Assembly: GCF_900182835.1 (NCBI RefSeq)
Contig: NZ_FXUB01000001.1
Span: 372,001-436,000 of the forward strand
Source of the DNA: Desulfurobacterium pacificum
Lineage (GTDB): Bacteria; Aquificota; Aquificia; Desulfurobacteriales; Desulfurobacteriaceae
Direction of reading: 5' to 3'
Length of the DNA stretch: 64,000 nucleotides
In this document: positions 10,949-44,379 of the stretch, piece by piece
How positions within the stretch are numbered: position 1 is the stretch's first letter
How the letters are laid out: each line of letters begins with the position of its first letter
The notes under the pieces: model-generated
Databases searched by the model: none
What the model was told of the DNA's origin: nothing
The model's input: only the letters and a program-made list of their open reading frames with translations
Translations under genes and position numbers: made by a program

Positions 10949-11668
10949 ATGGAATCCATAACTATCCTTTACGATAACAAAGCAGTAGAAGGCTTTACAG
11001 CAGATTGGGGATTCAGCGCCTTAATTGAAACAGACGAAGAAACTCTCCTCTTCGATACAGGCGCAAAACCCGAAATTCTCAAAGAAAATGGAGAAAAAGC
11101 TGGCGTTGACTGGCAATCAATAGACTTTATCTTCATTTCCCACAACCATTGGGACCACACCGGCGGTCTCCCGTTCATCTTACAGGTAACAAACCAGCCT
11201 GAGCTTGTTATTCCAGAAACAGACTTAGAATACTTTGAAGAGTTAGCCGGAGAAAAAGCCATTTGCGTTCCCGTAAACGCTCCAACATACATAAGCGAAA
11301 AGTTCATATCAACAGGAATAATGGCAACCGGCATGGAAAACCCGGCTGCCGAACACTCCCTGATTTTCCAATCTTCCAAAGGCTTCATTCTCATAACAGG
11401 ATGCTCACATCCCGGAATAGTTGAAATAGCAAAAAGAGCAACAACCATCTGCGGAGAAAAACTCCTGCTAACCATAGGCGGTTTCCACCTCTACAAAAAA
11501 GACGCAGCAGAAATAGAAGAAATAGCGCAACAACTTAAAAATTTCACAGAATACGTAGCGCCCTGCCACTGCACAGGCGATTTAGGAATAGAAATATTTA
11601 AAACTCTCTGGAAAGAACGTTTCATAGAAGCCAAAGCCGGCGTAGAAATTCCCCTACAGGAGGCATAA
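10949..11668 (+). CDS. MBL-fold metallohydrolase (dihydropterin-ribofuranosyl-type subfamily)
   Basis: This 239-residue metallo-beta-lactamase-fold protein has the HXHXDH metal motif as H65-N-H67-W-D69-H70, followed by GCSHPGI (third metal ligand) and GGFHL and PCHCTG near the C-terminus. This pattern matches the archaeal-like 'beta-RFAP-related' MBL group more than glyoxalase II. The substrate is unknown. GGAGGAAAG precedes ATG 10949. The stop abuts the ffh start (AATG spacing), so the gene heads an ffh operon and may only share expression with it. Confidence 0.82.
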   Translation: MESITILYDNKAVEGFTADWGFSALIETDEETLLFDTGAKPEILKENGEKAGVDWQSIDFIFISHNHWDHTGGLPFILQVTNQPELVIPETDLEYFEELAGEKAICVPVNAPTYISEKFISTGIMATGMENPAAEHSLIFQSSKGFILITGCSHPGIVEIAKRATTICGEKLLLTIGGFHLYKKDAAEIEEIAQQLKNFTEYVAPCHCTGDLGIEIFKTLWKERFIEAKAGVEIPLQEA

Positions 11669-28324: not shown

Positions 28325-29521
28325 ATGAACATAAGAGTTACTCCTTTAGACATCCAGCCCGTTTCCACTTCCGAAATTGAAATAGTGGAAAGAAAAGGGT
28401 TGGGGCATCCAGACACAATCTGTGACGCTTTGGCTGAAAAGCTATCAGCAGAACTCTGTAAACTTTACTACGAAAACTTCGGTTTTGTTCTCCACCACAA
28501 CGTTGATAAAAACCTTTTAGTTGGTGGAAGCGCTACTCCTAAATTTGGCGGCGGAGAAGTAACAGAACCGATAGAAATCTACCTTTCAGGTAGGGCAATC
28601 AAAGAATACAAAGGTAAGAAAATCCCCGTTGACGAAATCGCCATAGAAAGCGCTAAAGAATGGTTAAAAGAGAATATCCACGCTATTGACCCAGAGAACC
28701 ACGTAAGAATTTACCCTCACATACGTCCAGGCTCCGTTGACCTTGTAGATATCTACATGAGACAATTAAGAGACGGCGTCCCTCTTTCAAACGATACCTC
28801 TTTCGGCGTAGGATACGCTCCATTTGATGACCTTGAAAACGTAGTTTTCCAGATAGAGAAGAAACTCAACAGTAAAGAAATAAAGAAACTACATCCAGAA
28901 ATCGGTGAAGACATCAAGGTAATGGGCGTAAGGATAGGTGAAAAAATCACTATAACAATAGCCTGCGCCTTTGTAGACAGATTTGTAAAAGACATCAACG
29001 ATTACGTAGAAAAGAGAGAAAACGTTAGAAAATTAGCATACGAAGTGGCAAAAGAGTTCACAAATAGAGAAGTTGAAATCCACATAAACACAGGCGACGA
29101 CGTAGAAAACGCAAACGTCTATATAACTGTCACAGGAACTTCTGCAGAAGCTGGAGACGACGGAGAAGTAGGTAGAGGGAACAGAGTTAACGGTCTTATC
29201 ACTCCTTACAGACCTATGAGTCTTGAAGCAGCAGCAGGTAAAAACCCAATCACTCACGTAGGAAAGCTCTACAACATCACATCCAACGATATAGCAAAAG
29301 CTGTGGTAAACGAGATTCCAGAAATAGAAGAAGCCTACGTTTACATGGTAAGCCAGATAGGAAAACCAGTTAACCAACCTTTAGCCGTTGACGTTAAAGT
29401 AAGAACTCCAGAAAACTCAGCTAAATTCCAGACAAAGATAGAAGAAATCGTCAACGAATGCCTCGCCGATATGAAAAACATATGGAAAAGACTTATGAAT
29501 GGAGAGATAACCGTTTATTAA
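28325..29521 (+). CDS. Archaeal-type S-adenosylmethionine synthetase (AdoMet synthetase, MAT family)
   Basis: This 398-residue protein is the archaeal MAT family: IEIVERKGLGHPDTICDALAE (18-38), KFGGGEVTEPIEIYLSGRA (about 76-94), and a central GSVDLVDIYMRQL and NDTSFGVGYAP, with GDDGEVGRGNRVNGLITPYRP (about 277-297). It lacks the order of motifs of bacterial MetK. It makes S-adenosylmethionine from ATP and methionine. GGGAGGCGG precedes ATG 28325. Its presence in a bacterium suggests ancient transfer from archaea. No second, bacterial-type MetK is in the window. Confidence 0.93.
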   Translation: MNIRVTPLDIQPVSTSEIEIVERKGLGHPDTICDALAEKLSAELCKLYYENFGFVLHHNVDKNLLVGGSATPKFGGGEVTEPIEIYLSGRAIKEYKGKKIPVDEIAIESAKEWLKENIHAIDPENHVRIYPHIRPGSVDLVDIYMRQLRDGVPLSNDTSFGVGYAPFDDLENVVFQIEKKLNSKEIKKLHPEIGEDIKVMGVRIGEKITITIACAFVDRFVKDINDYVEKRENVRKLAYEVAKEFTNREVEIHINTGDDVENANVYITVTGTSAEAGDDGEVGRGNRVNGLITPYRPMSLEAAAGKNPITHVGKLYNITSNDIAKAVVNEIPEIEEAYVYMVSQIGKPVNQPLAVDVKVRTPENSAKFQTKIEEIVNECLADMKNIWKRLMNGEITVY

Positions 29522-31383: not shown

Positions 31384-31442
31384 AAATAGCTCCTACTTTA
31401 AGCTATATTTCAGACTGGAATTTAAGTTGTAGGAGTTGCTAC
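31384..31442 (+). promoter_or_regulatory. Structured leader that can mask the ribosome site of the SecM-like gene
   Basis: CTCCTAC (31390-31396) is the complement of GTAGGAG (31429-31435), which is the SD of the TTG start at 31443. The same left arm also lies between AAATAGCT and AGCTATATTT, so two mutually exclusive hairpins are possible. Related motifs with the form GCTAC...AAGCTA recur at about 31389-31406, 31437-31451 and 31495-31513. Confidence 0.5.
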
Positions 31443-31727
31443 TTGAAGCTAAATAAAATATTAGTAAATATAATCATCGTCACCGTACTAACCTGTAGCT
31501 ACTCAGAAGCTACAAGTTTACTGCTACACCAGATAAAAGCAGAAGAAACCGTATCAATAAAGCAACACACCAAAGAGACACAGAAGAAAATAATATCCCT
31601 ACAAAAGCAAATTCAACAGGTTACCGATTCTTCTGAAAGAGTAACGTTTCAAACTGAAAAAAACTGCGAGATTTATAACTTTTTAACGTTAAAATCCGCC
31701 CCCCCTCGCGCCTCCCCAAACTGCTAA
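31443..31727 (+). CDS. Putative SecM-like secretion-monitor (arrest) peptide upstream of secA
   Basis: This 94-residue protein starts at TTG 31443 (AGGAG, 7-nt spacing). It has a signal peptide: Lys at 2 and 5, hydrophobic ILVNIIIVTVLT, likely cleavage near SEA. A Lys/Gln-rich helical middle leads to the tail FLTLKSAPPRASPNC. The end R-A-S-P is like the R-A-G-P end of E. coli SecM and the R-A-P-P tails of other arrest peptides, and it lies two residues before the stop. secA begins 55 nt later. The last codons use GC-rich forms (GCC CCC CCT CGC GCC TCC) unlike the AT-rich neighbours, and CCTCCCC there pairs with the secA SD. Function as a monitor is inferred; the family is not identified. Confidence 0.72.
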   Translation: MKLNKILVNIIIVTVLTCSYSEATSLLLHQIKAEETVSIKQHTKETQKKIISLQKQIQQVTDSSERVTFQTEKNCEIYNFLTLKSAPPRASPNC

Positions 31728-31775
31728 ACGCTCAAAACTCCAAACCGCTCAAAACCACAAACCAATCGGGGAGGT
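31710..31775 (+). promoter_or_regulatory. SD-sequestering hairpin controlling secA translation
   Basis: CCTCCCC (31711-31717), inside the R-A-S-P codons of the upstream gene, is the exact complement of GGGGAGG (31768-31774), the secA ribosome-binding site; a G-U pair extends it to 8 bp. The 50-nt loop between is nearly free of G and contains the decamer CGCTCAAAAC twice (31729-31738 and 31746-31755), so it should stay open. A ribosome halted on the last codons would cover the left arm and expose the secA SD. Confidence 0.68.
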
Positions 31776-31782
31776 AACAAAG

Positions 31783-34398
31783 ATGATAAATACAATACTT
31801 ACGAAAATCATAGGCAGCAAGAACGAAAGAGAAATAAAAAAACTAAAGCCTTTAGTTGAAAAGATAAACGCCCTTGAACCGGAATTTGAAAAGAAAAGCA
31901 AGGAAGAATTACAGGCTTTAACTGCAAAGTGGAAAGAGGAGCTTGCAAAGATAGAAAAGGACGAAGACAAGTTTAAGTACATGGACAAAATCCTCCCAGA
32001 AGCTTTTGCAGCCGTCAGAGAAGCAGCAAAAAGAACGTTAGGAATGAGGCACTACGACGTCCAGCTCATAGGCGGTATCGTTCTCCATCAAGGCAAAATC
32101 GCAGAAATGAAAACAGGTGAGGGTAAAACGCTTGTCGCAACGCTCCCTGTTTACTTAAACGCTCTCGCAGGGAAAGGCGTTCACGTTGTAACGGTAAACG
32201 ACTACTTGGCAAAAAGAGACGCCGAATGGATGGGACCAGTCTACAACTACCTTGGAATTACCGTCGGATACCTCCAAAACCAGATGGAAAACCCTCAACG
32301 AAAAGAGATGTACGCGAGAGACGTAACCTACGGAACAAACTCTGAGTTTGGTTTTGATTATTTAAGAGACAACATGGCGTTTTCAAAAGAGGAAAAAGTT
32401 CAAAGAGAACTCTTTTACGCAATAGTTGACGAAGCAGACTCAATCCTCATAGACGAAGCGAGAACTCCACTAATCATTTCAGGACCTTCAGAAGAAAATG
32501 TTGACGTTTACTACATAGCAGATACGTTAGTCCAAACGCTCAAAAAAGACGTTGACTTTAAAGTTGATGAAAAGACAAAAACAGCCACACTTACAGACGA
32601 AGGCATCAAAAAGCTTGAAAAGATGATAGCCGAAATGTCGGGAACGAAAGACTTTAACCTCTACGACCCCAACTTCTCCGACCTTCTGCACGCAATAATC
32701 CAGTCAATCAGGGCACACCACTTATTCAAAAAAGACGTTGACTACGTAGTCCAGTACGACCCGAAAGAGAGAAAGAAAAAAGTCATAATCGTTGACGAGT
32801 TCACAGGAAGGATAATGCCCGGAAGGCGCTGGAGTGACGGTCTCCACCAGGCAGTAGAAGCAAAGGAAGGACTTGACGTAGAAGCAGAAAACCAAACCCT
32901 TGCGACAATTACGCTCCAGAACTACTTCCGCCTCTACAAGAAGCTCGCAGGAATGACAGGAACAGCAGAAACAGAAGCTGCAGAGCTCAAAGAGATTTAC
33001 GGACTTGACGTTGTGGTAATTCCAACGAACAAACCGGTAATTAGAAAAGACCACCCAGATTTAATATTCAAAACGATGAAGGCAAAGTACAACGCCGTTG
33101 TTAAAGAGATAGAGAAAAACTACAAAATCGGAAGACCTGTCTTAGTTGGAACAAACTCTATTGAAGCTTCAGAATACCTGTCAAAACTGCTGAAAAGGAA
33201 AGGAATTCCCCACCAGGTCCTCAACGCAAAACATCACGAAAAGGAAGCAGAAATAGTAGCTCAGGCTGGAAGGTTGGGTGCAGTAACAATCGCCACAAAC
33301 ATGGCAGGAAGGGGAACGGACATCCTTTTAGGTGGGAACCCCGAATTTATGGCTAAGAAGGAATTGGAGAAAAAAGGAATAACGCCTGAAAAGGTCGGCG
33401 AAGAAAAGTATCAGGAAATCTACAGAGAAACTCTTGAAAAGTACAAAAAGCTTACAGAGGAAGAGAAAAAGAAAGTTATTGAACTTGGCGGTTTGTACAT
33501 AATCGGAACAGAAAGAAACGAATCAAGACGTATAGACAACCAGCTCAGAGGTAGGGCTGGAAGGCAAGGAGACCCGGGAGAGTCAAGATTTTTCCTCTCT
33601 CTTGAAGACAACCTGCTTAGACTCTTTGGTTCTGACAAGGTAAAGAAAATGATGGAAATGATGAACATACCTGAAGACGAACCAATAGAACACAAGATGG
33701 TTTCCAAAGCCCTTGAAACTGCACAGAGGAGAGTGGAAGAACAGAACTTCCAGATAAGAAAGAGACTCCTTGAGTACGATGAGGTTTACAACATTCAGAG
33801 AAAAGTAATATACGAACAGAGAAACAAAATACTTGAAGGAGAGAACTTTAAGGAAGAAATTCTTACCTTCTTTGAAAACGTTGCATGGGAAATGGTTGAT
33901 ACTTTCGCTCCAGAGAATATTCTGCCCGATGAGTGGGATCTGAAGAAACTAAAAGAGATATTAAAGCAGCGGTTCGGCTTTGAATTTGAAATTCCTGATA
34001 CCTACGAAAAGCTAATGGAAATGGAAGTTGAAGGTGCTTTCAGCGATAGAGAGAAATTAGCCAAAATAATCTACAACAGGTTAGTTAAAGAACACCAGAA
34101 GATGGAGGAACTCTTAGGCGAAGAACAGATGAGAGAAATTGAAAGGATGGTTCTACTCCAAAGCCTTGACCACTACTGGAGACAGCACCTTAAAGCCTTA
34201 GACCACATTAAAGAAAGTATAGGCTGGAGAGGGTACGGACAGAGAGACCCTGTTGTTGAATTTAAGAAAGAAGCTTTCAGGTTATTTGAAGAGCTGATAT
34301 CAAACATTGAAAACGGAACAGTTGACGGACTCTTCAACTATTACAGATTCCTCCAGAGTCAACTTCAGCAGGAACAGTTAGCTGCGAGGGGAGAATAG
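31783..34398 (+). CDS. secA: Preprotein translocase ATPase SecA
   Basis: This 871-residue motor drives proteins through SecYEG. It has Walker A MKTGEGKTLVA (about 106-116), DEAD-like VDEADSILIDEARTPLIISG (about 212-231), the SF2 motifs TNMAGRGTDILLGG (about 506-519), RGRAGRQGDPG and the helical-scaffold region. The C-terminus ends in QLQQEQLAARGE with no CXCX8CH zinc-binding tail, so the SecB-binding zinc finger is absent. Its SD GGGGAGGT can be hidden by the end of the upstream SecM-like gene, predicting secretion-dependent control. Confidence 0.98.
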   Translation: MINTILTKIIGSKNEREIKKLKPLVEKINALEPEFEKKSKEELQALTAKWKEELAKIEKDEDKFKYMDKILPEAFAAVREAAKRTLGMRHYDVQLIGGIVLHQGKIAEMKTGEGKTLVATLPVYLNALAGKGVHVVTVNDYLAKRDAEWMGPVYNYLGITVGYLQNQMENPQRKEMYARDVTYGTNSEFGFDYLRDNMAFSKEEKVQRELFYAIVDEADSILIDEARTPLIISGPSEENVDVYYIADTLVQTLKKDVDFKVDEKTKTATLTDEGIKKLEKMIAEMSGTKDFNLYDPNFSDLLHAIIQSIRAHHLFKKDVDYVVQYDPKERKKKVIIVDEFTGRIMPGRRWSDGLHQAVEAKEGLDVEAENQTLATITLQNYFRLYKKLAGMTGTAETEAAELKEIYGLDVVVIPTNKPVIRKDHPDLIFKTMKAKYNAVVKEIEKNYKIGRPVLVGTNSIEASEYLSKLLKRKGIPHQVLNAKHHEKEAEIVAQAGRLGAVTIATNMAGRGTDILLGGNPEFMAKKELEKKGITPEKVGEEKYQEIYRETLEKYKKLTEEEKKKVIELGGLYIIGTERNESRRIDNQLRGRAGRQGDPGESRFFLSLEDNLLRLFGSDKVKKMMEMMNIPEDEPIEHKMVSKALETAQRRVEEQNFQIRKRLLEYDEVYNIQRKVIYEQRNKILEGENFKEEILTFFENVAWEMVDTFAPENILPDEWDLKKLKEILKQRFGFEFEIPDTYEKLMEMEVEGAFSDREKLAKIIYNRLVKEHQKMEELLGEEQMREIERMVLLQSLDHYWRQHLKALDHIKESIGWRGYGQRDPVVEFKKEAFRLFEELISNIENGTVDGLFNYYRFLQSQLQQEQLAARGE

Positions 34399-43518: not shown

Positions 43519-44379
43519 TTACCTAAGAAGTTGAAGCACAAGTTGTGGTAATTGATTTGCCTGAGCAAGCATAGCAGTACCAGACTGCATAAGAATCTGG
43601 TCTCTTGTAAACTCAGACATTTCTTTAGCGAAGTCAACGTTTCTAATTCTAGATTCAGCTTCCTTAACGTTAATCCTCTGGCTTTCGTTGTTAGTAACGA
43701 TTTTCTCAAGCTCTATCTGATAAGAACCAAACTTGGCGTTCAATTTGTCAACAGCTTTAATCAAAGCGTCAACAGTAGAAATTGTTGCTTCTGCAAGAGT
43801 CTGGCTTGTAACGTTAAGAACGTAAGCTGTGTTACCCAAAGTAATAGTGGATGGAGCGTTTGTATCAGTAGCAGCAGCCGCAGATGCAGTTGCACTCTGC
43901 ATTAACAAGGTCTGCTGTGTTCTACCACCATAGTGGATTGTAAAGCTAACTGCCGTTCCGGAGCTAAAGAGATTAACCCCATTAAACTCAGTATCTTTGA
44001 AGATTTTACCGATTACATCAACAAGCTTGTTAATATCTTGTTGGATAATTTGTCTTGTTGCATCATCCTGAGAGTCGTTAGCAGCTTCAATAGCTTTTGA
44101 CTTGATGTCGTTTAAGATGTTATAAACGTTTGTAAGAGCAGACTGGGCAATCTGAGAAATAGAAATACCATCTTGAGCGTTTCTAGTAGCTTGCTCAAGA
44201 GATACTGCGTAAGTCTTTAGTTGGTCAGCAATGTAAAGACCAGCAGCATCATCAGCAGCTCTGTTAATTCTGTAACCAGTAGCAAGTCTTTCGAGAGCTT
44301 TGTTCATGTCTGCTTCTGTTTGAAGCAAGTTAAAGTGTGTAAAGTCGGCTTGATAGTTGTAGTTAATCCTCAGAGCCAT
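43519..44379 (-). CDS. fliC: Flagellin
   Basis: This 286-residue protein has the conserved N-terminal D0/D1 region (ALRINYN...AERLATGYRINRAADDAAG, and NAQDGISISQIAQSAL) and the C-terminal D0/D1 (VNVKEAESRIRNVDFAKEMSEFTRDQILMQSG, ending QLPQLVLQLLR). The hypervariable centre is short, typical of compact filaments. It is transcribed from a sigma-28 promoter and ends at a strong terminator. The neighbouring glycosyltransferases suggest a glycosylated filament. Confidence 0.96.
   Translation of the reverse strand: MALRINYNYQADFTHFNLLQTEADMNKALERLATGYRINRAADDAAGLYIADQLKTYAVSLEQATRNAQDGISISQIAQSALTNVYNILNDIKSKAIEAANDSQDDATRQIIQQDINKLVDVIGKIFKDTEFNGVNLFSSGTAVSFTIHYGGRTQQTLLMQSATASAAAATDTNAPSTITLGNTAYVLNVTSQTLAEATISTVDALIKAVDKLNAKFGSYQIELEKIVTNNESQRINVKEAESRIRNVDFAKEMSEFTRDQILMQSGTAMLAQANQLPQLVLQLLR

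What the first reader, a model, noticed from the sequence alone, without database searches (positions are those of the whole stretch)
31692..31724. Codon choice at the arrest tail is bent to make the RNA arm
Codons from about 31695 to 31718 are TCC GCC CCC CCT CGC GCC TCC CCA, whereas the surrounding genes prefer A/T-ending codons such as AGA and GCA. A single tract thus serves protein (stall motif) and RNA (anti-SD), which is unlikely by drift in an AT-rich genome and argues that both layers are selected.
Basis: partly seen in the sequence, partly recalled or inferred. Interest (0 to 1): 0.6.

Follow-up and report, generated by a model that had tools for sequence, protein, structure and literature searches.

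The report
SecM-like leader whose mRNA hides secA
Just before the secA gene of this heat-loving vent bacterium lies a small gene of a known ribosome-stalling family, and the letters that spell its stall signal also pair with and hide the secA ribosome-binding site; this is a SecM-type switch, known in kind, with the RNA part well supported in only some relatives.

Summary
The last codons of the 94-codon ORF upstream of secA read TCC GCC CCC CCT CGC GCC TCC CCA (SAPPRASP). They are C-rich for this genome (P = 4e-4 for six or more C-ending codons, given the amino acids), and CCTCCCC 31711-31717 pairs perfectly with GGGGAGG 31768-31774 at the secA Shine-Dalgarno (SD) site. The peptide layer is firm: 18 of 19 Desulfurobacteriaceae genomes with a readable secA start carry this ORF, ending in RASP or RAPP. 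The group is already published (uA_RQH_Desulfurobacteriales, PMC10987492) and stalls ribosomes in vitro. The RNA layer is real but narrower than claimed. Only GCC TCC CCA form the arm. Synonymous recoding matches the observed SD masking in about 2% of cases. A sister genus gives the best support: a 12-14 bp helix from the same R-A-S-P codons over the SD to the start codon, with synonymous wobble changes matched on the other strand. But 11 of 18 orthologues show no excess pairing over recoding. The arm is thus a lineage-dependent part of a SecM-like switch. A Rho-type reading of the C-rich, G-poor leader stays open.

The parts
31430..31435 (+). Shine-Dalgarno-like TAGGAG of the leader ORF, 7 nt before its TTG start
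   Evidence: read from the sequence
31443..31727 (+). 94-codon leader ORF upstream of secA, SecM-like arrest peptide of the uA_RQH_Desulfurobacteriales group
   Evidence: group described in PMC10987492
31695..31718 (+). C-rich codons for SAPPRASP, the conserved C-terminal end
31707..31718 (+). R-A-S-P stall motif; predicted P site at Ser 31713-31715, A site at Pro 31716-31718
   Evidence: conservation; stall position by analogy with the RQH members toeprinted in PMC10987492
31710..31717 (+). 5' arm of the RNA helix (GCCTCCCC), anti-Shine-Dalgarno
31768..31775 (+). 3' arm of the helix (GGGGAGGT), the secA Shine-Dalgarno site
31783..34398 (+). secA

Best explanation
The tract is the end of a SecM-like secretion-monitor leader peptide. 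While the leader is made, its N-terminal signal is pulled by the Sec machinery. If export is poor, the ribosome stalls at R-A-S|P with Ser in the P site. In the resting mRNA the Ala-Ser-Pro codons pair with the secA Shine-Dalgarno (SD) site and lower secA translation; a ribosome stalled there covers that arm, frees the SD and raises SecA. Shown here: the conserved ORF, the conserved motif, the pairing, and its dependence on synonymous choice in this genome and in one sister genus. Inferred: stalling by this particular peptide, its control by export, and the effect on SecA.
For: 18 of 19 family genomes with a readable secA start have the ORF, its stop codon 46-78 nt before secA, ending PPRASP (14), PSRASP or PTRASP (2) or SRAPP (2); none of the 114 other Aquificota genomes searched has it, bar one weak N-terminal match. 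A published member of the group stalls B. subtilis ribosomes in vitro, and all RQH members toeprinted stall with the third motif residue in the P site. SD opening energy is 10.6 against 6.0 +- 1.7 kcal/mol for synonymous recodings, p = 0.02, and 5.2 kcal/mol at 70 C. Sister genus g2: recoding p = 0.015-0.04 in four of five genomes; a 14-pair helix with 91% of cells paired and three both-sided changes, among them Arg AGG/AGA with nt -1 C/U and Ser TCA/TCC with U/G. Own tail with own SD beats genus-swapped pairings, p = 0.002, and 0.0125 without g2. The E. coli secM end and secA SD region show the same layout in the sequence. G007 has lost the ORF (126 nt between the divergent neighbour and secA, against 475 here) and its secA SD is weak and mostly unpaired.
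Against: Eleven of 18 orthologues show no excess masking over synonymous recodings, and a test on genus means gives p = 0.11. Only five related sequences carry the covariation, and one of them (G001) needs another register or a bulge. Two other genes in the window have equally or more masked SD sites without a known leader. Published stalling was weak on E. coli ribosomes and low in vivo for this group.
Confidence: 0.7

Rival explanations
1. The peptide is a true arrest peptide, but the pairing in this genome is a by-product: Ser, Ala and Pro codons are rich in CC and TCC and easily look like an anti-SD. The codons are C-rich for other reasons such as local mutation or a C run.
For: Five C-rich codons outside the arm are unexplained. 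p is only about 0.02 for this genome. Eleven of 18 orthologues show no excess pairing. Two genes without a known leader have equally masked SD sites.
Against: The sister-genus helix with matched synonymous changes, the genus-swap test, and the SD ranking third most masked of 38.
Confidence: 0.2
2. The C-rich, G-poor leader end (C 34, G 7 of 78 nt) is a Rho-loading site. When no ribosome stalls, Rho ends transcription before secA; a stalled ribosome covers the site, as in tnaC.
For: C minus G of this stretch is in the top 0.08% of sense-strand gene windows; C exceeds G in all 18 genomes with the leader but not in G007, which lacks it. Rho is encoded in this genome.
Against: C-richness is partly due to Ser and Pro codons and is weak in several orthologues (13-20 C per 78 in g3 and g4). 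No termination data. It does not explain the helix of g2.
Confidence: 0.1

Closest known systems
uA_RQH_Desulfurobacteriales arrest peptides (Fujiwara et al. 2024, PMC10987492)
   Same: Same bacterial order, same place before secA, N-terminal signal, C-terminal RAPP-like motif. By the paper's wording this group is not among those with a di-proline in the motif, which fits RASP.
   Different: The main text describes no SD-masking RNA structure for this group; its supplement could not be read here.
E. coli SecM-secA
   Same: Leader peptide before secA with an R-A-x-P end. The mRNA at and just after the stall codons (CTCAACGCC) can pair with the secA SD region (GGGGCGTTTGAG) (by eye; the mechanism is given in PMC10987492 and PMC7897499).
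   Different: SecM's upstream stall residues (FxxxxWIxxxxGI) are absent here, and the end is RASP instead of RAGP. No overall similarity beyond the short motif (by inspection). The default fold of E. coli did not pick the known helix.
uDF_RQH_Enterobacterales (Alteromonas), VemP, MifM
   Same: Stalling induces a downstream Sec or YidC gene; for the Alteromonas peptide an SD-masking stem-loop was tested by mutation.
   Different: Different downstream genes and stall sequences.

Membership tests
RQH arrest peptides (uA_RQH_Desulfurobacteriales) | Short ORF of no annotated function directly upstream of secA | tested here: met
   94 codons, stop codon ends 55 nt before the secA ATG
RQH arrest peptides (uA_RQH_Desulfurobacteriales) | N-terminal localization signal | tested here: met
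   Hydrophobic N-terminus MKLNKILVNIIIVTVLTC, conserved in 17 aligned sequences; judged by eye, no signal-peptide program was run
RQH arrest peptides (uA_RQH_Desulfurobacteriales) | Conserved C-terminal RAPP-like motif (RASP was among the authors' query motifs) | tested here: met
   R89, A90 and P92 invariant in A1; RASP in 15 and RAPP in 2 of 17 rows
RQH arrest peptides (uA_RQH_Desulfurobacteriales) | More than 30 residues between signal and stall site | tested here: met
   About 65-70 residues between the hydrophobic segment and RASP
RQH arrest peptides (uA_RQH_Desulfurobacteriales) | Order Desulfurobacteriales | tested here: met
   Family genome G018 carries plasmid pTHEAM01 of Thermovibrio ammonificans HB-1 at 100% identity, so the window's family is Desulfurobacteriaceae
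RQH arrest peptides (uA_RQH_Desulfurobacteriales) | Ribosome stalling by this peptide | not testable with these tools
   Shown for a representative in the paper, not for this sequence
SecM | FxxxxWIxxxxGIRAGP stall sequence | tested here: not met
   NFLTLKSAPPRASPNC: R, A and P kept; W, I and G positions not
SecM | mRNA structure masking the secA SD, with one arm at the stall codons | tested here: met
   (prediction and recoding test, p about 0.02); no probing data

The most novel reading that the evidence does not exclude
In Desulfurobacteriaceae the stall codons themselves are the anti-SD arm, and different genera have rebuilt the arm in different registers (A-S-P here; R-A-S-P through to the start codon in g2; P-L-L in G015; S-S-P in G016; P-P-R in G009) on a fixed peptide motif: repeated re-evolution of the RNA half of a dual-coded switch while the protein half stays put.
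Probability: 0.3. Interest if true: 0.55.

Novelty: new member of a known kind. Interest (0 to 1): 0.35.

Why it matters
It ties a published arrest-peptide group of Aquificota, tested only outside its own host, to a concrete regulatory RNA element at secA. It also offers a natural series of genomes with strong, weak and no pairing, and one without the leader, for asking how protein and RNA constraints on one tract trade off. The principle itself (SecM) is well known.

Tried and rejected
Considered that the five C-rich codons before the arm also build it: not supported by partial recoding. Considered that the pairing is a family-wide rule: rejected, 11 of 18 show no excess. Considered a wider spread in Aquificota: the profile found the ORF only in the family; the one hit outside (G097) is an N-terminal match inside a 390-aa frame. 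The genome-contig scan returned only distant SecA genes (at most 64% identical) and was not used. G005, G008 and G014 could not be judged: secA cut by a contig end or absent. A default fold of E. coli secM-secA did not show the known helix, a warning on the limits of such predictions.

Full report
What is there. The codons cited are correct and in frame: they are the last codons of a 94-codon ORF (31443-31727) whose stop codon ends 55 nt before secA (31783-34398). CCTCCCC at 31711-31717 is the exact complement of GGGGAGG at 31768-31774; with a G-U pair it makes 8 bp. The minimum-energy fold contains it, with a mean unpaired probability of the Shine-Dalgarno (SD) site of 0.01 at 37 C and 0.09 at 70 C.

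Codon test. On 58 genes of the window the tract is unusual for its amino acids: P = 3.7e-4 for six or more C-ending codons of eight, 0.004 for GC content, 0.012 for overall codon rarity. These numbers are for a spot picked by eye. The bias is not confined to the arm: only GCC TCC CCA (31710-31718) form it. Random synonymous recoding of just those three lowers the SD opening energy from 10.6 to 5.8 kcal/mol on average (p = 0.027), while recoding the five codons before them leaves 8.8 (p = 0.087). Recoding all eight, or the last 22, gives p = 0.02.

What the peptide is. The window's family is Desulfurobacteriaceae: genome G018 of this family carries plasmid pTHEAM01 of Thermovibrio ammonificans HB-1 at 100% identity. 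In 18 of 19 family genomes with a readable secA start, the same kind of ORF lies before secA, with an N-terminal hydrophobic signal, a variable middle and a C-terminal end PPRASP (14 genomes), PSRASP or PTRASP (G018, G020), or SRAPP (G010, G013). A profile search of 136 Aquificota genomes finds it only in this family. This group is published as uA_RQH_Desulfurobacteriales: a representative stalled B. subtilis ribosomes efficiently in vitro and E. coli ribosomes less, with low effect in vivo, and all RQH members toeprinted stalled with the third motif residue in the P site. Here that would be Ser 31713-31715 with Pro in the A site, so a stalled ribosome would sit on the anti-SD arm (inference).

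Is the RNA layer selected? Synonymous recoding of the last 22 codons in each orthologue, with all else kept, shows excess SD masking in this genome (z = 2.6), G015 (2.5), four of five genomes of genus g2 (1.9 to 3.1) and G013 (1.8); the other 11 of 18 show none. Fisher's p = 0.001 overall, but g2 members are related, and a test on genus means gives p = 0.11. In the predicted folds the SD partner lies in the last dozen codons of the leader in 11 of 18 and elsewhere in 7 (read by eye). Pairing each leader tail with its own SD against the SDs of other genera gives p = 0.0018; 0.0125 without g2; 0.067 without g1 and g2. The secA SD is the third most masked of 38 SD-bearing genes in the window.

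The sister genus g2 is the best evidence. There the arm runs from the last base of the Arg codon through Ala-Ser-Pro and beyond, and pairs with the SD, the spacer and the base before the start codon: for example GGCUUCACCUUUAG with CUGGAGGUGAAGCC in G002. The count over five sequences gives 91% paired cells, three pairs with changes on both sides, and better values than slid registers on cells paired and covariation. Two of these changes are synonymous at the protein: Arg AGG/AGA with nt -1 C/U, and Ser TCA/TCC with U/G; the second rests on G001 alone, whose helix needs a different register or a bulge. Ala GCT and Pro CCT in the arm are identical in all five genomes, while in the first 238 secA codons conserved Ala and Pro residues keep one codon in only 1 of 14 and 0 of 5 cases.

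A natural loss. G007 (genus g3) keeps the divergent neighbour gene but has only 126 nt between it and secA, no leader ORF, a weak SD that is mostly unpaired, and more G than C in the region.

Reading. A SecM-like switch is the best explanation. Its peptide half is conserved across the family; its RNA half is supported in this genome modestly, in g2 strongly, in G015 and G013 weakly, and elsewhere not.

Open point. The leader end is strikingly C-rich and G-poor (C 34, G 7 of 78) beyond what the arm needs. Rho is encoded in this genome. A Rho-dependent attenuator of the tnaC type is possible and untested.

Noticed in passing
window 31690-31767: C-rich, G-poor tract (C 34, G 7 in 78 nt), in the top 0.08% of sense-strand gene windows; looks like a Rho-loading site and is not explained by the SD arm.
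   Followed up: partly
L101 (G007), between the divergent neighbour and secA: The leader ORF is absent in one genome of genus g3 although the divergent neighbour gene is kept: a natural loss.
   Followed up: partly
window 31443-31500 and orthologues in A1: A nearly invariant Cys at the end of the hydrophobic N-terminal segment (LTC, VVCGG, FTCG) with an invariant Thr before it; it resembles but does not match a standard lipobox.
   Followed up: no
L105 (G010), L113 (G013): Two genomes of genus g4 end in SRAPP in place of PPRASP: both stall motifs occur inside one family.
   Followed up: no
window 43519-44379 and 10949-11668: Two genes whose SD sites are as masked as or more masked than that of secA (opening energy 13.0 and 10.8 kcal/mol); possibly leader-controlled.
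   Followed up: no
window 28325-29521: 398-aa ORF that looks like an archaeal-type S-adenosylmethionine synthetase (from memory, not searched).
   Followed up: no
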